In this document: positions 2,353 through 62,990 of the stretch, piece after piece | How the letters are laid out: every line of letters begins with the position of its first letter | Numbering within the stretch: position 1 is the first letter of the stretch | Assembly (NCBI RefSeq): GCF_018069865.1 | Contig: NZ_JAGQDG010000002.1 | Coordinates: 1-64,000, forward strand | Direction: 5' to 3' | DNA length: 64,000 nt | Origin: Ideonella paludis | GTDB lineage: Bacteria; Pseudomonadota; Gammaproteobacteria; Burkholderiales; Burkholderiaceae_C | The notes under the pieces: model-generated | Seen by the model: only the letters and a program-made list of their open reading frames with translations | Told to the model about the DNA's origin: nothing | Database searches by the model: none | Made by a program: the position numbers and the translations under genes

Positions 2353-3468
2353 ATGGCCGGCCCCGAGCGCTACACCCGCGACGCCGCCCAGATCACGCTC
2401 AGCGTGAACGGGCAGGCCTATGTGGGCTGGCTGCAAAGCGAAGTCTCGCGGGACCTTGAAAGCATCAGCGCCACCTTCAGCGTGCCCATCAGCCTGCCCG
2501 CGGGCTTTGTGCCGCCGATCAAGCGGCAAGACCTGGTGCGGGTAGAGATCGGCAGCACGCTGGTGTGCACGGGCTATGTGCTGGCCGCCCAGGCCTTCTA
2601 CAACGCGCGGGACTGTGGCGTGGTCGTCATGGGGCGCGACCGCACGGGCGACCTCATTCGTGCCAGCGCCATCCACGCGGGTGGCCAGTGGCGCAATGTG
2701 GGCCTAGACCGCATCTGCCGCGACATCCTGGCCCCCTTCGGCCTGGAGCTGATGGTGGAGGCCGACATCGGCGCCCCGGTGGTGGACTTCAAGCTCGCCC
2801 ACGGCGAGACGGCCCTAGACGCCCTGGCCCGCGCTGCCAAGCTGCGCGGCGTCATCCTGAGCCGTGACGCAGCCGGGCGCGTGGTGCTGGCCAAGGCGGG
2901 CACCAAGCGCTTTAAGGGCACCATCCGGCGCGGCTGGAACGTGATCGAGATGCGCGACATCGGCACGGACGAGCAGCGCCACAGCGAGTACATCGTCTAC
3001 GGCCAAAGCCACACCGTGGCCAGCTTTGAGCAGGCGCGGGGCCTCAAGGCCCGGGCCTTCGACACTGAGATGCAGCGCTATAGCCCGCTCATCATCAACG
3101 CCCAGGGCAACACCACCCAGGCCGAGCTGCAGGCCCTGGCAGACCACACCGCCCGCGTGCGGCGCGGCCACAGCATGGGCTTGGCCTACACCCTAGAAGG
3201 CTGGACGTTTGAGGGCGAGGCCTGGCCGTTGAACGAGCGCGTGGCCATCTATGACGACGTGGCAGGCCTGGCCGGTGACGAGTGGCTCATCACCAGCGTG
3301 CGCCAAACCTGCAGCCTGCAAAACGGCGATGTCACCGAGCTGGTGGTGCGCCCCGTGGAGGCCTACGACAGCGTGCCCCTGAAGAGCAAGCCCGTGCGCC
3401 GCAACTGGGGTAACAAGGGCAACACCACGAACCACGACACAGGCCCCAGCGACGGGGCACGCTCATGA
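2353..3468 (+). CDS. Mu gpP-like baseplate hub protein
   Basis: 371 aa. The N-terminal 100 residues (SEVSRDLESISATFSV, then MGRDRTGDLI) and the middle beta-rich part match the Mu gp44/P hub family, which forms the trimeric ring between tail tube and spike. Position directly before the gp45 spike gene supports this. The stop overlaps the next start by ATGA at 3465-3468. The last 30 residues are polar and low in structure (KSKPVRRNWGNKGN), as usual for the family. Confidence 0.87.
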   Translation: MAGPERYTRDAAQITLSVNGQAYVGWLQSEVSRDLESISATFSVPISLPAGFVPPIKRQDLVRVEIGSTLVCTGYVLAAQAFYNARDCGVVVMGRDRTGDLIRASAIHAGGQWRNVGLDRICRDILAPFGLELMVEADIGAPVVDFKLAHGETALDALARAAKLRGVILSRDAAGRVVLAKAGTKRFKGTIRRGWNVIEMRDIGTDEQRHSEYIVYGQSHTVASFEQARGLKARAFDTEMQRYSPLIINAQGNTTQAELQALADHTARVRRGHSMGLAYTLEGWTFEGEAWPLNERVAIYDDVAGLAGDEWLITSVRQTCSLQNGDVTELVVRPVEAYDSVPLKSKPVRRNWGNKGNTTNHDTGPSDGARS

Positions 3469-54619: not shown

Positions 54620-54712
54620 ATGACCACATCTCACACGACGGCCAGCGCTGACGCTAGCCGCACACCGACCATCGGTTTTGTCTCATTGGGCTGCGCGAAG
54701 GATAGCCGATAG
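54620..54712 (+). pseudogene. rimO: 5' fragment of rimO cut by prophage
   Basis: Thirty codons. TPTIGFVSLGCAKDSR then stop. RimO (S12 methylthiotransferase) starts with this segment, but after GC(P/A)K a conserved ALVDSE stretch and 430 more residues should follow. Here the frame reaches TAG at 54710-54712. The chromosomal match ends at about 54700, where the prophage begins. The rest of rimO may lie beyond the prophage. Confidence 0.75.
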
Positions 54713-54731: not shown

Positions 54732-54755
54732 AAAAAAGCCCGCCGAGGCGGGCTT
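54732..54755 (-). terminator. Intrinsic terminator of the leftward phage operon
   Basis: On the minus strand: AAGCCCGCC, two bases, GGCGGGCTT followed by a T-run (seen as A's at 54732-54737). It lies 20 bases after the last gene of the operon and 20 bases before the rimO fragment stop, so leftward phage transcription does not run antisense into rimO. Confidence 0.85.
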
Positions 54756-54775: not shown

Positions 54776-55003
54776 TCAGAAGGTGGTCGGCTGAGCAACG
54801 CCGCGCGTCAGGGCCATCAGGCCAGTCTGCAGGTCAGTCGCGCCGATGCTCACCCAGCGTTGGTCCAGGCCATCTGTCGCTCGCAGTCTAGCCACCAGCT
54901 CGCCGAGCTTCACGCCCTCGGCTTTGATTTCGTTCATCAGCGCGGCTTCGGTTTCGTTGAGCTGGCGATAGCCCGTGATTTTGGGTTGGACGAAGGTTTC
55001 CAT
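54776..55003 (-). CDS. acb2: Acb2-like anti-CBASS protein
   Basis: 75 aa. The whole protein fits the Acb2/Tad1 helical-hairpin family: ITGYRQLNETEAALMNEIKA, then DQRWVSIGATDLQTGLMALT and the end RGVAQPT.F. Acb2 of Pseudomonas phage PaMx33 binds cyclic di- and trinucleotides and so blocks CBASS immunity. From memory, the ligand-binding Tyr and Lys are 15 residues apart; here Y12 and K27 have this spacing. It is the last gene of the leftward operon. Function by family, not shown. Confidence 0.72.
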   Translation of the reverse strand: METFVQPKITGYRQLNETEAALMNEIKAEGVKLGELVARLRATDGLDQRWVSIGATDLQTGLMALTRGVAQPTTF

Positions 55004-55043: not shown

Positions 55044-55271
55044 CTATATGCCGCGAAGGTTTTGCAGGCGCCTGGACAGCTCTTGCATGTTGCGCTCGGT
55101 GGGTGCCTTGCTCAGCGTGACCACCACTTCGCTGGGGTTGGTGGTGGACCTGGCGAGGCTGACGAACTCAGTGCCCTGCAGGCGCTTCTTTCGGTGTTCG
55201 CACGGCGTGACGCCGCCACCTTGCAGCAGCGGGTCATCTCCGCAGTCGTTCAGGCAGTCGCATCGGGTCAC
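55044..55271 (-). CDS. Hypothetical phage protein with Cys-rich start
   Basis: 75 aa. I do not recognise it. The start has MTRCDCLNDCGDDP with three Cys, then CEHRKK, and a helix ending SRRLQNLRGI. The Cys may bind a metal. It overlaps the next upstream gene stop by ATGA and lies 40 bases before the Acb2-like gene. Confidence 0.55.
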   Translation of the reverse strand: MTRCDCLNDCGDDPLLQGGGVTPCEHRKKRLQGTEFVSLARSTTNPSEVVVTLSKAPTERNMQELSRRLQNLRGI

Positions 55272-55519
55272 CGGCCCACCTCGATGGGGTTGCTCACCAC
55301 GCGCAGGAATCCCTTGCCCTGCAAGAGGCTGCGGTAGCTGTTGACAGCGACGGCCTCGGCCTCGCGTGCGACCTGGTCACCGGCCGCAATGAGCTGGCCA
55401 TCCTCGGCCACGATGGCGAGCCGGGCAGGGCGGCCGTCCACAGTGACGACAAGCCCCTCGTGCGCGACCGCGCTGATGACGACACCGTCGATGCCGCCAA
55501 TGGGTTGTGTGCCGATCAT
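55268..55519 (-). CDS. Hypothetical phage protein
   Basis: 83 aa, no family recognised. Small, beta-rich and hydrophobic in the first half (DGVVISAVAHEGLVVTVDG). It overlaps both neighbours by ATGA, which supports it being a real translated gene of the operon. Confidence 0.55.
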   Translation of the reverse strand: MIGTQPIGGIDGVVISAVAHEGLVVTVDGRPARLAIVAEDGQLIAAGDQVAREAEAVAVNSYRSLLQGKGFLRVVSNPIEVGR

Positions 55520-56022
55520 GCTGGCTCCTTGGTTTGATTTGTGGTGACGACACGGATCTTGATCCGCCTAGCGTCTTTGCCCGTTGGCCGAGGCTGGTCT
55601 CTAATGGCCAGCCAAGCGCCATACGCTGAAGCTGGTGAGAGGCCGTAGCCTGCATGGCCATCAACGGTGGCGCACACCCAAGACCGGTGACGGCCGACAG
55701 ACCTGCGTGGCCTGATGTGTGGCTTGCGCGCCTTCACCATGTTTTCCGCCACGCGCTTACTCAAGTACACGCTCTCGCACACCGAGCACACAGCCATGTC
55801 TTGCCCATCCGCCACGGCCTGCTGTGGCTCGGCGCACCCGACGCAAGCCACCGCGCTCGGTGCCAAGAGATCTTTGCCTGCGGGGGTCGCCAGTAGGCGC
55901 ACTGTCGCAACGCACTGCAGCCACAGCCAATGCAGCCGGGCCGTCATCTTGCTGCTGTGGGTGGTGCGGCAGGTGCTGCAGCATGTCCAGCCAAGGCGCA
56001 GTCTGTGCTTGCGGCCGATCAT
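55516..56022 (-). CDS. Phage protein with three Cys pairs
   Basis: 168 aa. CCSTC, CVGC and CSVC suggest zinc ribbons. A C-terminal GYGLSPASAYGAWLA segment is often found in small phage proteins of unknown function. The start at 56022 overlaps the upstream stop by ATGA. It could bind nucleic acid, but that is not shown. Confidence 0.6.
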   Translation of the reverse strand: MIGRKHRLRLGWTCCSTCRTTHSSKMTARLHWLWLQCVATVRLLATPAGKDLLAPSAVACVGCAEPQQAVADGQDMAVCSVCESVYLSKRVAENMVKARKPHIRPRRSVGRHRSWVCATVDGHAGYGLSPASAYGAWLAIRDQPRPTGKDARRIKIRVVTTNQTKEPA

Positions 56023-56552
56023 GCTGATTCCTCGCAGTACGGCCTAATCGCATCGCGGCTAAAGTCGGGCTGAACCCCCAGACTGGCCCTCGCCCAGATT
56101 CCTTGAATCTGAGTCTCTGCCCAGAGCGCCGCGTCCTCGGCCAGAGCCAGCGATGTCTCGTCCACTAGTGCATCGCACACTTGAACGCCGAGCTTGGCCA
56201 GACTCAGTTCCTCCTTCGTCAATGAGACGTGGCCCGTGACCCCGAAGCGCTGCAGGATTGCTGTAGCCAGCGTGAGCTGCTCTTCCATCTCGACCTCGCC
56301 GCATCCCAGCCGGATCGATACGTAATGCCACAGCAGCAGACCTTCAGCCCACTGCATCATTACGCCTGGGTCACTTCCACCCTGGGCTAGTAGCTCGATG
56401 TTGGCGGTGTTTACCAAGCCCAGTCGCGTGCGCTGATCGCGCGCCAACCGTGGTCCCGTGTGCCGTGGGACCTCGGTTTTGGCCCGCGCCACCAGCCCCC
56501 TCAGCAGCCGAGGCACGGCGACGGTTCCTGTGCTGCTACGTGCGCGGGCCAT
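56019..56552 (-). CDS. Hypothetical phage protein
   Basis: 177 aa. I recognise no family. The N-terminal 30 residues are basic; the rest is mostly helical (GLLLWHYVSIRLG, EEQLTLATAILQRFG). It begins three bases after the ParB-like stop and ends in an ATGA overlap. Confidence 0.6.
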   Translation of the reverse strand: MARARSSTGTVAVPRLLRGLVARAKTEVPRHTGPRLARDQRTRLGLVNTANIELLAQGGSDPGVMMQWAEGLLLWHYVSIRLGCGEVEMEEQLTLATAILQRFGVTGHVSLTKEELSLAKLGVQVCDALVDETSLALAEDAALWAETQIQGIWARASLGVQPDFSRDAIRPYCEESA

Positions 56553-56555
56553 CTC

Positions 56556-58466
56556 TCATGCCTCCGCAGTAGCACCGGCATCGACGCCCTGGGCGTCGGT
56601 GCCTTCAATCAGCCCTTGCTCGGCGGAGCCGAGCACTGGATCTGTATTCCCTTGGGCGGCGGCTTGCCCGTCGCCGTCGGCCCCTACCGGCGCCAGCGCA
56701 GCGGGGCCGTCGGTTTTTTGCACCGCGAAGTCGGCCAGGGTCTTGCCATTTGCCAGCGCCACTTGCAACCACTTCGGCTTCAGGCCCCGGCCACTCCATG
56801 CTTGGCCGGAGTCGGGGCAGCGGTAGGCCACAGCTCGGGGATTTGCTTTAGCCGCCCCCTTATCCAGCGCGCGCGCAGCGGGGGGAAGGGGTTCGGAGGG
56901 TTTGGGCGTCTCGATGGGCACGCCGTAGCGCTTTGCGGCGCTCAGCAGTTCGGTGGGCTGCTCATTGGTCCAAGGGTTAGCTCGCACGTGCTTGACCAGG
57001 GCGCAATCCATCAGCAGCTTGGTGAGGTCTTGAACGGGCATGCTGCCGACCGATTTCTGCAAGTCGGTGTAGTCGTCATGGCCCCAAAGCTTTGTCAGCG
57101 TGCCTTTGTCCCAATGGCCGACTCCGCACAGTGCCGCGTGGCAAACCATAGCCAGGTCGATGTGATCGCGCGGCTGGGTGTGCATCACGGCCCGCGTGCG
57201 CAGCAGTAGCTCATATTGGGCCTCGGTCAATCGCTCGGCCTTTTCCTCCTTCTTCTGGCGCTCCGCCGCGTCGCGCGCCTGCCGGGCCTTCCAGTCGTCA
57301 TGCTCGCGCTGCTGCTTGGGGGTGGCTTGGCGCACACCCAACCCGATCAGCTCGGCTTCCTTCACAGCTTTAAACAGCTTCCCGGTGCGGGGGTCTTGAA
57401 TTGTCACCACGGTGGGCGCGCTGGTGGCCTGCTTGGCGGCTTCCTGTTTGGCCTTAGCCAGCTCAGCCTTCACATCGGCCAGCGCCACGTATGCGCCGGT
57501 GACCACGCCTCGGGCGCTGACTGCGGCGCGAGCCTTGTTGCCCTCGATCACCACCTCCCCCTTTGCGGCCAGCTTTTGGGCCTCTGCCTTCAGGTGGGCG
57601 GTCTTCTTGGCTTGGTAGCAGTCGGGGTCGGTGCACAGCCAAGCGTCTCCCTTCACTACACCACCCCAGCGACGCGCTGAGTCCTGCACCATGTCTTGAT
57701 ACTCTGGTGCGTTCTCGGTGCGCTTGGGGCATGTCGTGCAGGCGCCTGCACTGGGCAACAAGTCCGGGTCAGCAAACGGGAAGATGCAATCCTTAGCCGT
57801 CAGGTTGAGCGTGAACTCCTCGCGCAGTAGCCATTGGATGTCGCGATAGCTCTTCTTGCCGCCGTCGCCCATGTCCATGTTCTTTGCTTTGATGCGCGCC
57901 AGGGCCTTGCCCTGCAGCTTCTCTGTCGGGATGCGGGCCACCAGAAGGGCGGTCTCGCTGCCGATCTCTCCGGCTAAGCAGGCGTCGCGCACTTCTTTGC
58001 AGGCCTGCAGCAACTTCAAGCGGCCGTAGATGTAGCTGCGGCTCTTGCCGGTCTCGGCGACCAGGTCATCGGCACTCAGGCCGTGCTCGGCCATCAGCGC
58101 CTGGAAGCCCTCGGCCTCTTCAATCGGGTGGACGTCGTCCCGCTGCAGGTTCTCAGAGAGCTGCATGCGCTTGACCTGCTCATCCGTCAGGCTCTGCACC
58201 ATGGCTGGCATGGTCTCCAGGCCTGCCAGCACGGCCGCGCGGTACCGGCGGTGGCCAAAGACCAGCTCATATCCCGCCACTGCGTTTTCGTCGTCAATGC
58301 CATGGAACAGCTCGGGGATGCGGGGGCGCACCAGCACCGGCTGAAGCACGCCGAGCTGCTTGATGTCGGTGGCCAGTTCTTGAAGTCGTGTTTCGTTAAA
58401 GACGCGGCGGGGGTTGAAAGGCGACTCGTGGATGTGGTCGACGCGGATTTGTGGGGTTTGGCTCAT
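56556..58466 (-). CDS. ParB-like protein with H-NS-type C-terminal motif
   Basis: 636 aa from ATG 58466; 79 more codons upstream only overlap the dNMP kinase. ParB N-terminal domain (about 1-130): FNPRRVF, FGHRRYRA, and SENLQRDDVHPIEEAEGF. A helix-turn-helix follows (LVAETGKSRSYIYGRLKLL), then Cys pairs (CTTC, CTDPDC) and a charged coiled coil (about 350-440). Residues about 548-583 match the AT-hook-like H-NS core of Burkholderiales: Y-R-x-P..G..WSGRG..P.WL, ending in DFAV. It may bind phage or host DNA and silence it. The role is inference. Confidence 0.8.
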   Translation of the reverse strand: MSQTPQIRVDHIHESPFNPRRVFNETRLQELATDIKQLGVLQPVLVRPRIPELFHGIDDENAVAGYELVFGHRRYRAAVLAGLETMPAMVQSLTDEQVKRMQLSENLQRDDVHPIEEAEGFQALMAEHGLSADDLVAETGKSRSYIYGRLKLLQACKEVRDACLAGEIGSETALLVARIPTEKLQGKALARIKAKNMDMGDGGKKSYRDIQWLLREEFTLNLTAKDCIFPFADPDLLPSAGACTTCPKRTENAPEYQDMVQDSARRWGGVVKGDAWLCTDPDCYQAKKTAHLKAEAQKLAAKGEVVIEGNKARAAVSARGVVTGAYVALADVKAELAKAKQEAAKQATSAPTVVTIQDPRTGKLFKAVKEAELIGLGVRQATPKQQREHDDWKARQARDAAERQKKEEKAERLTEAQYELLLRTRAVMHTQPRDHIDLAMVCHAALCGVGHWDKGTLTKLWGHDDYTDLQKSVGSMPVQDLTKLLMDCALVKHVRANPWTNEQPTELLSAAKRYGVPIETPKPSEPLPPAARALDKGAAKANPRAVAYRCPDSGQAWSGRGLKPKWLQVALANGKTLADFAVQKTDGPAALAPVGADGDGQAAAQGNTDPVLGSAEQGLIEGTDAQGVDAGATAEA

Positions 58467-58476
58467 GGTGATTCGC

Positions 58477-59064
58477 TCAGCGGGTGGTCCAGTAGCCCGC
58501 ATGGCGGACTGCGAGGGTGGAGAGAGTGCAGGCCAGCATGGAAGGCAGTAGCTCAAGCGGGCCGCTGTTGTCGAGCGTGATATCGGGCTCGATGTAGTCG
58601 CGCTCACTGATGTGGTATCTCGCATCAGGTCTATCGCGCTCGACGCGGATGATGTGACCGCCCAGTCGGCGGACAAAGCGGGCCTCGTTCTCAAAGCGAA
58701 CATCAGTCAGAACGATGCGGTCATGGATGGGCGCGGCCTCTTCGCCGTCCAGGCCTAGGACCCGCGCCGCGTGGCGTACCCAAAAATCAGGGTGCAGGCG
58801 TCGGCCCCACTCTTTGCCCAAGGTTTCCATCATCGCCAGCGCGCTCACGTCGAGCGTCGGGATGGGCTGCCTTTTGAGGTCGCGCTCAAACAGGTGGGCA
58901 TAGTCGATGTTCGCACTGGTGAGCAGTGCCGTCAGCATGTCGTGCAGGGGCTCGGCAAAGGCGTGGCGCTGGAATCCGAGGTTGTTGCACAGGTGGTCGG
59001 CCACGGTGCCTTTGCCGCTGCCGGATTTGCCTGACAGGCCAATCAATACGCAAGGCTTAGTCAT
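58477..59064 (-). CDS. Deoxynucleoside monophosphate kinase
   Basis: 195 aa. P-loop GLSGKSGSGKGTVADHL at the start, lid region, and TDVRFENEARFVRRLGG, as in phage dNMP kinases (T4 gene 1-like / AAA_33 type). It supplies dNTP precursors to phage replication. The start at 59064 overlaps the upstream stop by ATGA; the longer frame to 59106 is rejected. Confidence 0.85.
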   Translation of the reverse strand: MTKPCVLIGLSGKSGSGKGTVADHLCNNLGFQRHAFAEPLHDMLTALLTSANIDYAHLFERDLKRQPIPTLDVSALAMMETLGKEWGRRLHPDFWVRHAARVLGLDGEEAAPIHDRIVLTDVRFENEARFVRRLGGHIIRVERDRPDARYHISERDYIEPDITLDNSGPLELLPSMLACTLSTLAVRHAGYWTTR

Positions 59065-59420
59065 GCCGCAATCCTCCGCATCGGCACCCAAGTGGGGTTG
59101 CCCCACACATCGCTCAGGTTGGTGGATACAGCCGTCTGCACTGCTGCAGCGCCGCTGAACTTGCGGTCAATCGACGCGGCAATCCAAGGCCCGTCCATGA
59201 CGATGGATGGCGGTGGCGTGCCGATCAGTGCGCGCAGGTCAAACACGGCAATCGCGTGCGGCAGCACCAGGGCGCGCAGCAGCGGGGCCAGTTGGCCATT
59301 GCGGGCCACGCGGTGCAGCGTGGTCACGGTGCCATCGGCCATGGTGATGGGCTGGCTGTCGGCCAGCACAGCGTGCGGGCCGTGCTGGTGGATGATGGTG
59401 TCTCGGTTCGTCGTGGTCAT
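59061..59420 (-). CDS. Hypothetical phage protein
   Basis: 119 aa from ATG 59420. No family recognised. It has an HRVARNGQLAPLLRAL middle and a Pro-rich loop (GTPPPSIVMDGPW). It is coupled to both neighbours by ATGA overlaps. Confidence 0.6.
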   Translation of the reverse strand: MTTTNRDTIIHQHGPHAVLADSQPITMADGTVTTLHRVARNGQLAPLLRALVLPHAIAVFDLRALIGTPPPSIVMDGPWIAASIDRKFSGAAAVQTAVSTNLSDVWGNPTWVPMRRIAA

Positions 59421-59752
59421 CAATCGTCCTCCTGGTCAAGGTCTCCTGCAGCGGCGCTGCGGGCGTCAAAGTAGCGCTTGGGGCGTGGTGCGGGTGGCCG
59501 CGCGGGCCGGGGCTGGGTGATGGGCGGTGGCCCAGCCGGAAAGCCCCAGCAGGGCGCGGCCTTGGGGCTCAGCCTGGGGTGCTTGCCCTGGGCGATCAGC
59601 AGCGCGTGCAGGTTGACGATGCGGGCTGCCAGTGGCATCTGCAGGACCATCTCCAGCGTCATGCCCTTACAGTGCTTGAGCTGGCCGGACCCGATCAGAT
59701 GCGTCAGCGCTGCTGTCTGCTGGGCTGTGGTGATAGCTGCGTATCGAGCCAT
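59420..59752 (-). CDS. Hypothetical phage protein
   Basis: 110 aa. No family recognised. Helical start (QQTAALTHLIGSGQL) and a Pro/Arg-rich second half (GPPPITQPRPARPPAPRPKR) that should be unstructured. The start at 59752 overlaps the upstream stop; the 196-aa frame extending to 60010 runs antisense-like through the next gene. Confidence 0.55.
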   Translation of the reverse strand: MARYAAITTAQQTAALTHLIGSGQLKHCKGMTLEMVLQMPLAARIVNLHALLIAQGKHPRLSPKAAPCWGFPAGPPPITQPRPARPPAPRPKRYFDARSAAAGDLDQEDD

Positions 59753-59991
59753 CACGCCACCTGCTGCAAAGCTTGAAACACAAGGTGCCGCGCCTCCCGG
59801 CCGCAGGGGCCGGTGTCTGCTCGGGCCTGGGCCACAGGCATGGGCCTGCTGCCCACCTCGGGGCAGTGGCAGTGCGTCGCGTTCACTGCACCGTTGTTGC
59901 ACTGCAGGCCATTGGCCCGGCCGTGGAAGCAAAACGCACAGGCGCGCTCGCTGACTCCGTTCAAGGAGTAGGGCGGGAAGTAGCTGCTCAT
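59752..59991 (-). CDS. Small Cys/His-rich phage protein
   Basis: 79 aa from ATG 59991. Cys/His pattern CAFCFHG, C, then HCHCP suggests one or two zinc sites. A TTG at 59997 would overlap the upstream stop (TTGA) and could be the true start given the coupling in this operon. Function unknown. Confidence 0.55.
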   Translation of the reverse strand: MSSYFPPYSLNGVSERACAFCFHGRANGLQCNNGAVNATHCHCPEVGSRPMPVAQARADTGPCGREARHLVFQALQQVA

Positions 59992-59993
59992 CG

Positions 59994-60380
59994 TCAAAAC
60001 CTCCGCTCAAGGGCTATGTGCAGGCCGTGGGCGGTGCCCACGCAGGGCGCTTTGGGCAGATAGGCCACGCGCAGGGCGTAGCCGTCATCACCCAGGGGCA
60101 AGCGCACGGATGGCGAGACGACAGGCAACACTTTGGCGGCGGGGTATCCCGTCACCCCGCCCACCGTCAGCGCGAAGCGGCCATCGCTGGTCTGCCAGGT
60201 CATGCCCGCATAAGCACTGGCCCGGCCATAGCTGTTGCGGTAGGCGCCCACAGTGGCCCCGCTCTCGGCCCGGAAATAGATGCCGGGGTTCACCGGCTGC
60301 AGGTGCTCGGCGGCGGCATCCCCGCCCACGTGGGCAGTGAAGAGATGCAGGCCGAGCGTCATGGCGGTGGACATGCTCAT
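59994..60380 (-). CDS. Phage beta-barrel-like protein (lysogenic conversion candidate)
   Basis: 128 aa from ATG 60380, which overlaps the upstream stop. A pattern of alternating residues, NPGIYFRAESGATVGAYRNS and YAGMTWQTSDGRF, and the final aromatic residue F after RR resemble small outer-membrane barrels found in phage operons (similar shape to PagP-like proteins). No signal peptide is present, so surface location is not proven. Function unknown. Confidence 0.6.
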   Translation of the reverse strand: MSMSTAMTLGLHLFTAHVGGDAAAEHLQPVNPGIYFRAESGATVGAYRNSYGRASAYAGMTWQTSDGRFALTVGGVTGYPAAKVLPVVSPSVRLPLGDDGYALRVAYLPKAPCVGTAHGLHIALERRF

Positions 60381-60571
60381 GACGCGAACCCCCAGGGCCA
60401 GATCGCTGAACCGGCCAAAACCAGCACGATGGCCAGCGCATAGACCAGCAGCGACAGCCGGGGGTTCTTGCGCTCGATCTCCCACATGTCGCTGTTGGCA
60501 GCGTTCGAGTCGTGCCACGTGTGGGGTGTAGGGCCGGTGGTGGGCCAGCGGGGGATGCGGGGGGCGCTCAT
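60377..60571 (-). CDS. Small single-span membrane protein
   Basis: 64 aa. A polar start (to about 38) precedes one hydrophobic helix (LSLLVYALAIVLVLAGSAIW). Overlaps both neighbours by ATGA. It lies directly before the barrel-like gene, so the two may act together in the envelope. No family recognised. Confidence 0.6.
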   Translation of the reverse strand: MSAPRIPRWPTTGPTPHTWHDSNAANSDMWEIERKNPRLSLLVYALAIVLVLAGSAIWPWGFAS

Positions 60572-60921
60572 GCCGCGTTCCCGACGTGCTCGATGGAAGT
60601 GCGGGGAAGCGCGGCGGGGCTGAACGTCACCTCAGCCATGTCATTTGCAAGCGCTCGATAGCTGCTACCGGCCCAAGGCTGCGATGCGAGGTCGGTTTCA
60701 GCTTGTTCGGCCGCTCTGAGCAGGCGCTCGCCCAACTCGCGCGCTTCAGCGGGGGTCAGCGTGGACGAGGTCCGGAAGTGGCCGTCGGTGGTTCCGATCG
60801 CCAAGCGAACCTCGCCATGCATTGCGTACGGCGCTGTTGGATTTGGCGTGTACGTGTAGACCTCAACGCTCTGGCTCGGCGTCAATTGAGGCCTGGTCTC
60901 GTGACTAAAGCTCCGACACAT
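60568..60921 (-). CDS. First gene of the leftward phage operon, unknown function
   Basis: 117 aa from ATG 60921, which has AGGAG eight bases upstream. The longer frame to 60987 would start inside the promoter. A beta-rich N-half and a helix (AEARELGERLLRAAEQAE) follow. It occupies the place of N in lambda but has no resemblance to it. Function unknown. Confidence 0.65.
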   Translation of the reverse strand: MCRSFSHETRPQLTPSQSVEVYTYTPNPTAPYAMHGEVRLAIGTTDGHFRTSSTLTPAEARELGERLLRAAEQAETDLASQPWAGSSYRALANDMAEVTFSPAALPRTSIEHVGNAA

Positions 60922-60977: not shown

Positions 60978-61015
60978 ATTTAAGCAATGCTTTTCTTTGG
61001 TGTCAAGCAATGCTT
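60978..61015 (-). promoter_or_regulatory. PL-like promoter with two operator copies
   Basis: On the minus strand TTGACA (61006-61001), 17 bases, TTAAAT (60983-60978). AAGCAATGCTT occurs at 60982-60992, touching the -10, and at 61005-61015, touching the -35; the centres are 23 bases apart. This fits repression of the leftward operon by the phage repressor. Confidence 0.8.
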
Positions 61016-61065
61016 TATATGTGGTTCAAAAAAAAGAGCCGCTGTGGCGGCCCGTCAACTTAGTC

Positions 61066-61584
61066 TCAGCGGGAAATCAGCCTCGCGGCGAGCCCTGTAA
61101 TGTCCTCTCCGCCAGCCTTTGTGCAGCGCTCATTCCAGGCTTTGACGAAGCGGTTGGAATCACGCTCCTCAAGTAGTAGCTGGGGTGTCTTCCCTGGGAT
61201 CAACACGGCAGCCGACTCAATCGATGCATTGAATGCATTTTTGGCTCTGATCGTGTAGCAGCTGCTCCCGTCGTCTTTGACAACCAACGACTTCAGCTCA
61301 AATGAAGACGGGTCTTTCATGCTTGCCTTCAGCAGTTGAGCGGCACGAATGGCGGCGTTTTGGTTCGCACCAATAACTGCGTTGCGGGCGGTCTCTGCCG
61401 GGTCTGGTGGTGCCTTCTCGCGTTGGGCGTTGGAGATCGCTCCTGCGGTTGCGGCCACGATGATGAGTGCCACCACCCAGGTAAGCAGACTAGTCTTCTT
61501 GGGCACGGGTGACCCGCATGACGGGCATGCCTTTGCTGTGCTGCTAACGCTATGAGTGCATTCTTTGCATGTGATGAGAGCCAT
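61066..61584 (-). CDS. Zinc-ribbon membrane protein in the rex position
   Basis: 172 aa. Zinc ribbon (CKEC, later CPSCG; Cys 6, 9, 20 and 23), one TM helix (about 32-51), then a domain (about 70-172) with LLKASMKDPSSFE and two further Cys. AGGAGG precedes the ATG. In lambda the genes between cI and PL are rexAB, expressed in the lysogen and excluding other phages. A similar role is possible here, but it is inference from position. Confidence 0.75.
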   Translation of the reverse strand: MALITCKECTHSVSSTAKACPSCGSPVPKKTSLLTWVVALIIVAATAGAISNAQREKAPPDPAETARNAVIGANQNAAIRAAQLLKASMKDPSSFELKSLVVKDDGSSCYTIRAKNAFNASIESAAVLIPGKTPQLLLEERDSNRFVKAWNERCTKAGGEDITGLAARLISR

Positions 61585-61682: not shown

Positions 61683-62123
61683 ATGAGTGAAGCTGGCTAT
61701 TGGGTTCATGAACGCACGTGCACAGCCACAGCGGAGGGCGATGGCAAAACGCTGGTGGTTCAGTTCCATGGCACCGTTCATCACAAGTCATTGAGCAAGT
61801 TAATGGCAGAGGTGGGCTGGCTGATGAAGCCGCCGCCTGTCTACCTGGGTGTGCTGCTTGACTTCTCTGGTGCGTTGCTTGTGATGGAGGACTTGGCACT
61901 AGCGCAGGCCCTTAGCCGCCCGGCCTATCTCGGCCCTTGGTGCCCTTTGGCTGTAGTCGCAGGTCACCAGATCCAGCGGTTTCGGCTTTTCGCTTCGCAC
62001 TGCGCTTCACCGTTGGTGGCTCGGACGGCGCGCGTTTTCTTGGCTGATGGTCCGGCGTGCCGCGACTGGTTGTTGGAGCGCCAGTGGGTACACGCACGTA
62101 TGTCGGAGTTGGCAGCGGGGTGA
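61683..62123 (+). CDS. STAS-like protein opposite the repressor tail
   Basis: 146 aa. LGVLLDFSGA with a hydrophobic strand, then PLAVVAGHQIQRFRLFASHC and ARVFLADGPACRDWL give a STAS/SpoIIAA-like layout. The last 212 bases overlap the repressor on the other strand. Ribosome signal is weak. It may be real and convergent, but the overlap lowers confidence. Confidence 0.5.
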   Translation: MSEAGYWVHERTCTATAEGDGKTLVVQFHGTVHHKSLSKLMAEVGWLMKPPPVYLGVLLDFSGALLVMEDLALAQALSRPAYLGPWCPLAVVAGHQIQRFRLFASHCASPLVARTARVFLADGPACRDWLLERQWVHARMSELAAG

Positions 62124-62631
62124 CGCTCGGCCAAGCACCGTACTCCAGCAAGTAATCAATCCCAACGCCAATTTGGCGCAATCGATCAAGTGGAACCGCC
62201 TGCAGGTTGAGTGCGATGCGCTCCGCTTCTGCGTTGGGGGCCTCCGACTGCATGGGCTGGGCCCGGCCTTCTTCAAAGCGTTCAATCCTGTCGCGGACAA
62301 CACCCTGAATCTCCAAGCGCTGCTCGGTTGACAGTGCCTGAAACCTCGTCCGCGATATTCCGGGGAAAGGCCAGTCCGAGGCCTCTTCTTTGGCCGTCAA
62401 CGGCGGCGCACCGCTAAAGCTCGGCCCTTCGCCGAAGTAGGCAGCGGCCTTCGCCAGATTGGTCTTTGTGATCCGCCCCGTCTTTTTCCAGCCTGACACG
62501 GCCTGGGGGGACGTTGCGCAGTGCTCAGCAAGCCCGGCGGCAGTCTTGCCCCTCGATTTGCCCTCTTCAAGGACGCGCACCAGCCAATTTTTGACCGTCT
62601 CGGTGTCGCTGGGGTCTTGGTTGTAAAGCAT
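61912..62631 (-). CDS. Phage repressor without peptidase domain
   Basis: 239 aa from ATG 62631. The HTH is at about 30-60 (AGLAEHCATSPQAVSGWKK), of Cro/CI type. The rest lacks the S24/LexA self-cleaving domain (no Ser/Lys dyad motif); the last 60 residues are Pro/Arg/Lys-rich and overlap the opposite gene. A TTG start at 62658 would add nine residues. The operator at 62626-62636 covers its start codon, so it may regulate itself. Confidence 0.75.
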   Translation of the reverse strand: MLYNQDPSDTETVKNWLVRVLEEGKSRGKTAAGLAEHCATSPQAVSGWKKTGRITKTNLAKAAAYFGEGPSFSGAPPLTAKEEASDWPFPGISRTRFQALSTEQRLEIQGVVRDRIERFEEGRAQPMQSEAPNAEAERIALNLQAVPLDRLRQIGVGIDYLLEYGAWPSVTPLPTPTYVRVPTGAPTTSRGTPDHQPRKRAPSEPPTVKRSAKRKAETAGSGDLRLQPKGTKGRDRPGG

Positions 62632-62704
62632 TGCTAATTCTTTGGCATGAGTAATCAATCATCCAATGCTTGTTTTTGACTAAAGCAATGCTTTATCATT
62701 CCGC
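62626..62704. promoter_or_regulatory. OR-like operator cluster with rightward promoter
   Basis: AAGCATTGCTA at 62626-62636, ATCCAATGCTT at 62661-62671 and a perfect AAGCAATGCTT at 62683-62693. A rightward promoter may use TTGTTT (62670-62675), 18 bases, TATCAT (62694-62699), giving a start of transcription at about 62706, which is also the cro ATG. This would make the cro message leaderless. Confidence 0.7.
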
Positions 62705-62705
62705 C

Positions 62706-62990
62706 ATGAGCTTGATTGACTACCTCAATGGTGAGCGTGGGCGAGGCAGGGCTGTCGCCAAGGCTGCTGGCCTTAGCACGTCTTTTCTCTCTCAACTGGC
62801 GAGGGGCAAGCGCCCCATACCGGCTGAGCACTGTGCGCCCATTGAGCGAGCCACCGGCTTTGCGGTCATGAGATGGCACATGAGGCCGCATGACTGGCAT
62901 CGCGTGTGGCCCGAGCTGCTGCATAGCCCTGGTGCCCCCGAACCGGGGACGCAAGGGGATGACGGCTGCGGTAGTCGACCAACTGACTGA
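62706..62990 (+). CDS. Cro-like YdaS-family regulator
   Basis: 94 aa. LIDYLNGERGRGRAVAKAAG and SFLSQLARGKRPIPAEHC form the helix-turn-helix of the YdaS/Cro family; RPHDWHRVWPEL is also typical. It should compete with the repressor at the operators. No Shine-Dalgarno is seen before the ATG, which fits a leaderless message. An in-frame Met at 62670 would read through the operator. Confidence 0.8.
   Translation: MSLIDYLNGERGRGRAVAKAAGLSTSFLSQLARGKRPIPAEHCAPIERATGFAVMRWHMRPHDWHRVWPELLHSPGAPEPGTQGDDGCGSRPTD

What the first reader, a model, noticed from the sequence alone, without database searches (positions are those of the whole stretch)
54776..55003. Acb2-like anti-CBASS gene at the end of a prophage early operon
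The 75-aa product fits the Acb2/Tad1 hairpin family over its full length (DQRWVSIGATDLQTG, AQPT end), with Tyr12 and Lys27 spaced as in the characterised PaMx33 Acb2 ligand site (recalled, not aligned here). It closes a 13-gene leftward operon behind an operator-controlled promoter, so the sponge would be made early in infection and on induction, when CBASS would act. It sits 76 bases from the broken rimO, at the prophage edge.
Basis: partly seen in the sequence, partly recalled or inferred. Interest (0 to 1): 0.75.

Follow-up and report, generated by a model that had tools for sequence, protein, structure and literature searches.

The report
Prophage sponge against bacterial immune signals
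A dormant virus in this bacterium carries a small gene of a known family of proteins that soak up the alarm molecules bacteria use against viruses; the gene itself is an ordinary new member of that family, but a related virus seems to carry a different sponge protein in the same slot.

Summary
The 75-aa ORF at 54776-55003 (-) is a real Acb2-family protein. It matches Pfam Acb2_Tad1_hairpin over the whole profile (E 1.1e-16, 61 bits, cut-off 27). Its predicted fold finds Acb2 and T4 Vs.4 structures in the top 9 rows and nothing else with confidence. Residues aligned with Vs.4 Y8, K23, R79 and T68 are invariant in 79 of 79 relatives read. It is under purifying selection. Its hairpin tip is 18 residues shorter than in PaMx33 Acb2.

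It closes a 13-gene leftward operon that starts at a promoter-like site with two operator copies, also found between repressor and cro-like genes. It is the last gene of a ~40.4-kb prophage placed by a serine integrase inside rimO; the phage supplies rimO with a new 5' end.

Beyond the finding: in a related rimO-phage the end-of-operon slot holds Tad1, another nucleotide sponge; two relatives have no gene there. The slot looks like a cargo site where sponges can be exchanged, on few examples. Binding was not tested. New member of a known kind.

The parts
54776..55003 (-). acb2-like gene, 75 aa, compact Acb2 hairpin protein
   Evidence: Pfam PF24729 E 1.1e-16; PDB phmmer hits to chains 8h2j and 8ixz, molecule name 'p26', E about 1e-10, 8h2j being Acb2 with 3',3'-cGAMP; fold match to 8h2x/8h2j/7uq2; conservation; dN/dS
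54732..54755 (-). intrinsic terminator just after acb2 (GC stem plus T6)
   Evidence: sequence; fold -18.9 kcal/mol for 41 nt, z -2.4, 4 of 200 shuffles as good; not listed by the consensus scan
55044..55271 (-). g12, 75 aa, Cys-rich N terminus, no known family; lies between g11 and acb2
   Evidence: no PHROG, Pfam or PADLOC match; relatives, mostly of the N terminus, in 20 viral contigs
55268..55519 (-). g11, 83 aa, conserved gene near the operon end that marks the slot
   Evidence: relatives in 21 viral contigs and in related rimO phages
55516..60921 (-). rest of the leftward operon: g10, g9, ParB-like g8 (56556-58466), dNMP kinase g7, g6, g5, g4, PagP-like g3, g2, g1
   Evidence: PHROG matches for g8, g7, g3; none for g1, g4, g5, g6, g9, g10; g2 was not scanned; spacing
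60978..61006 (-). candidate early leftward promoter, TTGACA-17-TTAAAT (10 of 12 to consensus, read by eye)
   Evidence: the tool scan, which demands A at position 2 of the -10 box, found none in the region, shuffles mean 1.6
60982..61015 (.). two operator copies AAGCAATGCTT at 60982-60992 and 61005-61015
61036..61053 (-). terminator-like site between the upstream leftward gene (61066-61584) and the candidate promoter
   Evidence: 11 terminator-like sites in the region against 7.7, sd 3.1, in shuffles; fold -12.9 kcal/mol, z -1.54, 12 of 200 shuffles as good
61912..62658 (-). putative repressor gene
   Evidence: weak PHROG transcriptional-regulator match, E 0.0038; lies opposite a cro-like gene
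62626..62693 (.). operator copies 62626-62636 (1 mismatch) and 62683-62693, at the start of the repressor and of the cro-like gene
62670..62990 (+). cro/CI-like repressor gene
   Evidence: PHROG 35 transcriptional repressor E 2.3e-12
54620..54712 (+). rimO 5' stub left by integration (30 codons and stop)
54688..54694 (.). attL junction region (GGGCTGC); the matching attR lies outside the window at about C15:95116

Best explanation
The gene encodes a compact Acb2: a small two-helix hairpin protein, expected to assemble into a hexamer, that binds cyclic oligonucleotide alarm signals made by host CBASS enzymes and holds them without cutting them, so that the effectors which would kill the cell are not switched on. 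Shown here: family membership, predicted fold of the monomer, conservation of the cyclic-dinucleotide contact residues, selection, and position as the last gene of a leftward operon behind operator sites. Inferred: that the operon is repressed in the lysogen and made early in infection and on induction, that the protein is hexameric, and that it binds both cyclic di- and trinucleotides as the studied Acb2 does. The gene is accessory cargo in a slot between the conserved gene g11 and the attachment site.
For: Pfam PF24729 full-length match, E 1.1e-16. phrog_717 E 9.7e-16, the PHROG in which Jenson et al. found Vs.4 homologues (PMC10097602, passages). phmmer to chains 8h2j (Acb2) and 8ixz (same molecule name, p26), E 1.1e-10 and 1.2e-10. 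AlphaFold model pLDDT 90.4, helices 17-42 and 48-70. In the Foldseek search the top 9 rows are Acb2 (8h2x, 8h2j; E 1.2e-4 to 6.8e-4) or Vs.4 (7uq2; E 0.046 to 0.060, probability 0.99-1.00), and the next row has E 2.3. Vs.4 Y8, K23, R79 and T68 align with Y12, K27, R67 and T56, invariant in 79 of 79 relatives; interface positions L29, A66 and A73 align with L33, G54 and G61 (roles in Vs.4 from PMC10097602 and, for T68, PMC12657230, passages). Purifying selection. Operators, promoter-like site and terminators. A review states that Acb2 is active on lysogenic induction and not in maintenance (PMC12043709, passages). Slot with Tad1 in a relative.
Against: No binding, expression or protection data. 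The base-stacking F82 of Vs.4 is A70 here and H11 is L15, although PaMx33 Acb2 has A88 and L14 at those positions. The hairpin tip is 18 residues shorter than in PaMx33 (93 against 75 aa). The monomer superposition is only moderate (TM 0.66-0.70 on the query for Acb2 chains, rmsd 4.4-5.3). The sigma-70 scan found no promoter, and terminator-like sites in the region (11) are about one sd above shuffles (7.7, sd 3.1). The host genome has no SMODS, ThsB_TIR or mCpol match. Across 200 genomes of the host family, Acb2/Tad1-hairpin matches (7) and SMODS matches (21) coincide in only one (G105), about what chance gives.
Confidence: 0.85

Rival explanations
1. The same protein fold and sponge mechanism, but the signal that matters in this host clade is not a CBASS dinucleotide: it mainly sequesters cyclic trinucleotides (cA3/cAAG, CBASS or type III CRISPR) through the trimer-interface site.
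For: Residues outside the dinucleotide contacts are as conserved as these: R49 and W50 in 77 and 78 of 79, T56 and Q59 in 79 of 79. A review says Acb2 binds cyclic trinucleotides with higher affinity than dinucleotides, at independent pockets (PMC12043709, passages). Which residues form that site was not available to me in print.
Against: The dinucleotide contacts Y12, K27 and R67 are also invariant in 79 of 79, so that site is under selection as well. Type III CRISPR was not searched in the host.
Confidence: 0.2
2. It is a Tad1-like sponge for gcADPR and serves against Thoeris.
For: Acb2 and Tad1 share one Pfam hairpin model. A related phage has a true Tad1 in the slot.
Against: The protein is only the hairpin; the N-terminal beta-sheet of Tad1 (PMC12043709, passages) is absent in 75 aa. 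The structural neighbours are Acb2 and Vs.4, and no Tad1 entry is among the 50 rows printed of 87. No ThsB_TIR match in the host.
Confidence: 0.04
3. A degenerate or repurposed family member that no longer binds signals (for instance one that kept only a structural or regulatory role).
For: Shortened hairpin tip; loss of the stacking Phe seen in Vs.4.
Against: Y12, K27 and R67 invariant in 79 of 79 relatives, dN/dS 0.012-0.077 for 9 of 11 pairs, intact start and stop. The compact form is widespread in phages, and PaMx33 Acb2 also lacks the Phe.
Confidence: 0.07

Closest known systems
Acb2 of Pseudomonas phages PaMx33/PaP2 (p26; PDB 8h2j, 8h2x)
   Same: Two-helix hairpin; N-terminal GYR motif; Y, K and R ligand residues; conserved RW and C-terminal helix; ends in Phe; both have Leu and Ala where Vs.4 has His and Phe
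   Different: 75 against 93 aa: most of the tip between the helices is missing. Gene neighbours differ: beside a structural-protein gene in PaMx33, end of a repressor-associated leftward operon here
Vs.4 (Acb2) of phage T4 (PDB 7uq2)
   Same: Y8, K23, R79, T68 equivalents kept; same hairpin
   Different: H11 is Leu, F82 is Ala; in the alignment T4 has a gap at the RW motif; lower similarity (Foldseek E 0.046-0.060)
Acb2-like protein of Acinetobacter phage Ab9 (PP763254)
   Same: 73.8% identical over residues 11-75; 74 aa, compact
   Different: Encoded between head-tail adaptor and head protease genes; annotated hypothetical
Tad1 (7uav, 8kbe)
   Same: Same Pfam hairpin model; lies in the slot of a related rimO phage (its hairpin scores 20.4 bits, below the cut-off of 27)
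   Different: Has an N-terminal beta domain, about 130 aa, binds gcADPR; the window protein has no such domain

Membership tests
Acb2 | Match to the family profile above its curated cut-off, over the whole domain | tested here: met
   PF24729 61.1 bits against 27, profile 1-58 of 58
Acb2 | Helical hairpin fold like 8h2j/8h2x/7uq2 | tested here: met
   Model pLDDT 90.4, two helices; the 9 top neighbours are Acb2 or Vs.4. Superposition moderate, TM 0.62-0.70 on the query
Acb2 | Cyclic-dinucleotide contact residues (Vs.4 Y8, K23, R79) | tested here: met
   Y12, K27, R67; invariant in 79 of 79 relatives; roles from PMC10097602, passages
Acb2 | Base-stacking Phe and His as in Vs.4 (F82, H11) | tested here: not met
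   A70 and L15. PaMx33 Acb2, a proven member, also has Ala and Leu, so this is not a defining feature of the family
Acb2 | Homo-hexamer with three dinucleotide sites | not testable with these tools
   Only monomers can be modelled; interface equivalents L33, V37, G54, G61, L65 read
Acb2 | Binds and releases cyclic oligonucleotides without cleavage; protects from CBASS | not testable with these tools
   needs purified protein
Tad1 | N-terminal beta-sheet domain before the hairpin, gcADPR pocket | tested here: not met
   Only 16 residues precede the first helix, no strand in the model
Cargo slot (rimO-integrating serine-integrase phages; my own term) | g11 towards the attachment site with variable genes between | tested here: met
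   Window: g12 + acb2. G210: 59-aa ORF + Tad1 (attL not on the contig). L138, L140: no gene. L142: two other ORFs. G212: one open frame on the other strand. G218: about 6.7 kb between g11 and the integrase end, only partly read

The most novel reading that the evidence does not exclude
The space between g11 and the attachment site of these rimO-integrating phages is an exchange slot for nucleotide-sponge cargo at the end of the early operon: related phages swap Acb2, Tad1 or other genes there, so that the set of host alarm signals neutralised on infection and induction can change without touching the rest of the phage. In one further phage (L209) acb2 and tad1 stand next to each other.
Probability: 0.4. 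Interest if true: 0.6.

Novelty: new member of a known kind. Interest (0 to 1): 0.38.

Why it matters
The gene adds a well-supported compact Acb2, encoded by what looks like a complete temperate phage. A 75-aa form with a clipped hairpin tip would show how little of Acb2 is needed to bind signals. The slot gives a natural comparison: phages that share an integrase, an attachment site and an operon end, and that differ in whether they carry Acb2, Tad1 or neither. That makes it directly testable which host signalling systems select for which sponge, and whether sponge cargo is exchanged to dodge systems such as Panoptes, which punish phages that carry Acb2 (PMC12657218, abstract and passages).

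Tried and rejected
Tad1 identity for the window protein was considered and rejected: no N-terminal beta domain. Chance ORF was rejected. A conserved gene neighbourhood for acb2 was looked for and not found: apart from the acb2 cluster itself (113 loci) and two large clusters centred on it that I take for shadow frames (70 and 45 loci), the largest neighbour clusters within 3.5 kb cover 9 loci each. With my own iterated seed profiles 30 of 114 loci have a terminase, portal or head/protease gene within 3.5 kb, a rough count. Of the window's operon genes other than acb2, 11 were searched (g2 was left out) in 112 loci of relatives: only a dNMP-kinase relative in L010 and L057 and a g9 relative in L065 were found. 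An association of CBASS with acb2 in the host family was tested and not seen; four of the six Acb2/Tad1-hairpin rows outside this genome are partial or below the cut-off (G105, G053, G188, G151), so this test is weak. PADLOC gave no match for 10 proteins, nine from the window and one slot ORF of L197. Relatives of g10 in viral contigs: none confirmed. Papers that I recall as the first PaMx33 Acb2 work, the trinucleotide site and Tad1/Tad2 as broad sponges are not held, so PaMx33 Y11 and K26 as ligand residues are recalled, while the Vs.4 ones are read in print.

Literature for novelty: the searches (listings and the starts of abstracts); none of the titles or abstract starts listed describes a sponge-exchange slot or a rimO-integrating phage with acb2. 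The search for serine integrase with rimO or prophage showed 10 of 85 papers, none holding the word rimO. Only an open-licence library was searched.

Full report
WHAT IS THERE. The ORF 54776-55003 (-) encodes METFVQPKITGYRQLNETEAALMNEIKAEGVKLGELVARLRATDGLDQRWVSIGATDLQTGLMALTRGVAQPTTF, 75 aa. Pfam gives one family, PF24729 Acb2/Tad1 hairpin, at 61.1 bits (cut-off 27), E 1.1e-16, residues 11-71 on profile 1-58 of 58. PHROGs gives phrog_717 (E 9.7e-16), the group in which Jenson et al. found Vs.4 homologues (PMC10097602, passages). Among solved chains the best are 8h2j and 8ixz, both named 'p26', at E 1.1e-10 and 1.2e-10 (8h2j is Acb2 with 3',3'-cGAMP); the next, MICAL1, are at E 0.026 or worse. 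In phage records tblastn finds 222 of 50,697 records with a match at E 0.01 or better. Pattern-seeded scans, which are not exhaustive, confirm 114 relatives in viral contigs, of which the best 80 were kept, and 32 in the collection of 84,980 species genomes. In the window's own genome it is the only PF24729 match.

LIGAND SITE AND FOLD. I aligned the protein with PaMx33 Acb2 (locus L086), T4 Vs.4 (L088), Ab9 (L087) and 79 of the 80 viral relatives (L029 dropped because its match holds a stop). In Vs.4 the printed contacts with cGAMP are Y8, H11, K23, R79 and F82, and the hexamer interface includes L29, F33, A66, A73 and A77 (PMC10097602, passages); T68M lowers affinity (PMC12657230, passages). 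Y8, K23, R79 and T68 correspond to Y12, K27, R67 and T56, each invariant in 79 of 79. A66 and A73 correspond to G54 (79 of 79) and G61 (77 of 79). H11 and F82 correspond to L15 and A70, as they do in PaMx33 (L14, A88), and A77 to L65 (I83 in PaMx33), so the window protein is of the PaMx33 kind. The stretch between the two helices is 18 residues shorter than in PaMx33. AlphaFold with 53 aligned sequences gives pLDDT 90.4 and two helices, 17-42 and 48-70. Foldseek against the PDB ranks six Acb2 chains (E 1.2e-4 to 6.8e-4) and three Vs.4 chains (E 0.046 to 0.060) first, then nothing better than E 2.3. The superposition is moderate (TM 0.62-0.70 on the query, rmsd 4.3-5.3). No oligomer could be modelled here.

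SELECTION. Against 11 relatives dN/dS was 0.012, 0.031, 0.030, 0.042, 0.077, 0.057, 0.075, 0.048 and 0.037 (L001, L002, L089, L090, L003, L004, L005, L008, L009), 0.207 (L010), and undefined for L012 because synonymous sites are saturated. The gene is maintained.

OPERON AND CONTROL. Thirteen leftward genes run from 60921 to 54776 with overlaps or gaps of -46 to +40 nt (several start codons were set by reading, and the 5' end used for g5 is not a start codon). A terminator-like site (61053-61036) follows the gene upstream (-12.9 kcal/mol, 12 of 200 shuffles as good). Directly after it lies TTGACA-17-TTAAAT at 61006-60978, read by eye; the tool's consensus scan lists no promoter in the region (1.6 expected in shuffles), because it requires an A that this -10 box lacks. 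Two copies of AAGCAATGCTT flank and overlap this site, and two more (one with a mismatch) lie at the repressor and cro-like genes. These four are the only matches with up to one mismatch in the 64-kb window (shuffles: mean 1.2, 3 of 100 reach four) and in 97.5 kb of contig; their number alone is modest evidence, their placing at the two expected control regions is the stronger part. After acb2 comes a terminator (-18.9 kcal/mol for 41 nt, 4 of 200 shuffles as good). Repression in the lysogen and early expression are inferred. A review states that Acb2 is active during induction and not in lysogenic maintenance (PMC12043709, passages).

THE PROPHAGE. The window is contig C15:1-64000 of a 4.8-Mb genome. 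The element runs from about 54694 to about 95116, 40.4 kb. It has a ParB-like protein and dNMP kinase, helicase-primase, terminase, portal, major head protein with protease, tape measure, tail proteins and a DNA methyltransferase, and a 539-aa serine integrase (Resolvase and Recombinase domains) whose start lies 12 nt from the restored rimO start. The left end cuts rimO after 30 codons; at the right end rimO runs full length (461 aa, no stop; profile positions 2-432 of 432), its first codons (MTATSPKIPSIGMVSLGC) supplied by the phage. Six rimO loci of the same genus (L127, L128, L130, L132, L133 and, nearest to the left end, L134) show the undisturbed 5' end; rimO in L134's genome is itself matched in two pieces, so only its 5' end is used. 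Of 13 integrase relatives' loci, five (L138, L140, L142, L145, L147; the last two print the same sequence there) read, beside the integrase, into an in-frame RimO-like 5' end that then leaves the rimO sequence, as an attP would; in L139 a full rimO follows and in L141 its first 34 residues up to the contig end; the other six do not reach that side. So this phage family restores its target gene, and 'broken rimO' should be dropped.

THE SLOT. g11 (55268-55519) has relatives in 21 viral contigs. In rimO-phages where both g11 and the attachment side could be placed, what lies between differs. Window: g12 + acb2. G210 (L139's contig, integrase 75% identical, g11 74%): a 59-aa ORF and then, at the contig's end, a 130-aa protein that matches solved Tad1 at E 5.5e-20 (7uav) and gp184 at 3.8e-21. 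L138 and L140: no gene, g11 being followed by a terminator-like stretch and the attachment site. L142: ORFs of 228 and 112 aa without Pfam family. G212: a 226-codon open frame on the other strand between g11 and its rimO stub. G218: about 6.7 kb lie between g11 and the integrase end (coordinates), of which I listed only the first 2.2 kb. Among the 13 integrase-bearing records PF24729 scores above its cut-off in none and below it in two: G210 (the Tad1, 21 bits) and G209 (14.8 bits, inside its integrase frame, so chance). Sponges of this kind were thus found in the slot of 2 of 7 phages. The attL of G210 is not on its contig, so its position at the prophage edge is inferred. A separate phage contig, L209, carries an 85-aa Acb2 and a Tad1 on the same strand: 1 of 78 Tad1 loci; none of 112 Acb2 loci holds a Tad1 in the stretch fetched.

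MOBILITY OF ACB2. Relatives of the protein lie in quite different surroundings: 30 of 114 loci have a terminase, portal or head/protease gene within 3.5 kb by a rough profile count; L001, 97% identical, lies between terminase and portal genes; L005 and L091 directly after the portal gene, in L091 followed by the head maturation protease gene; L090 near an integrase gene. The gene seems to move between phages on its own.

HOST DEFENCES. The host genome has no match to SMODS, ThsB_TIR or mCpol. Other CD-NTase families, type III CRISPR and other Thoeris forms were not searched. In 200 genomes of the family SMODS matches occur in 21 (20 over the cut-off) and Acb2/Tad1-hairpin matches in 7, this genome included (6 over the cut-off), both in one, G105; 0.7 would be expected by chance. 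mCpol is above its cut-off in 0 of 200.

VERDICT. Known kind, new member, firmly assigned at the level of family and fold; function by analogy. The slot with interchangeable sponges is the part that a specialist may not have seen, and it rests on few phages.

Noticed in passing
L192:1-393 (-), IMG/VR contig 3300022658_000326: A Tad1 protein (130 aa) sits in a related rimO-integrating phage downstream of the same gene g11, where the window has acb2.
   Followed up: partly
L209:2322-2579 and 3001-3393 (+): Acb2 (85 aa) and Tad1 are encoded 0.4 kb apart on the same strand in one phage contig, with one small ORF between them.
   Followed up: partly
54620-54712 and C15:95050-96448: A large serine integrase places the phage inside rimO, and the phage carries a RimO-like 5' end with its own start codon that restores the gene after integration; the same arrangement is seen in several related phages.
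   Followed up: partly
59994-60518: Early-operon protein with a match to PagP (antimicrobial peptide resistance, lipid A acylation; PHROG 3600, E 1.4e-8).
   Followed up: no
L084:10248-11948 (C15:74248-75948): A 567-aa lipase/esterase-like protein (PHROG 6102, E 1.2e-14) is encoded between portal and major head protein genes.
   Followed up: no
61066-61584: Leftward gene with an N-terminal zinc-ribbon-like motif and a probable membrane helix (both read by eye), between repressor and early promoter; only PHROG families of unknown function match. Candidate lysogenic conversion gene.
   Followed up: no
55044-55271: g12, beside acb2, has a Cys-rich N terminus (TRCDCLNDCGDDP) with relatives in 20 viral contigs and no known family.
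   Followed up: partly
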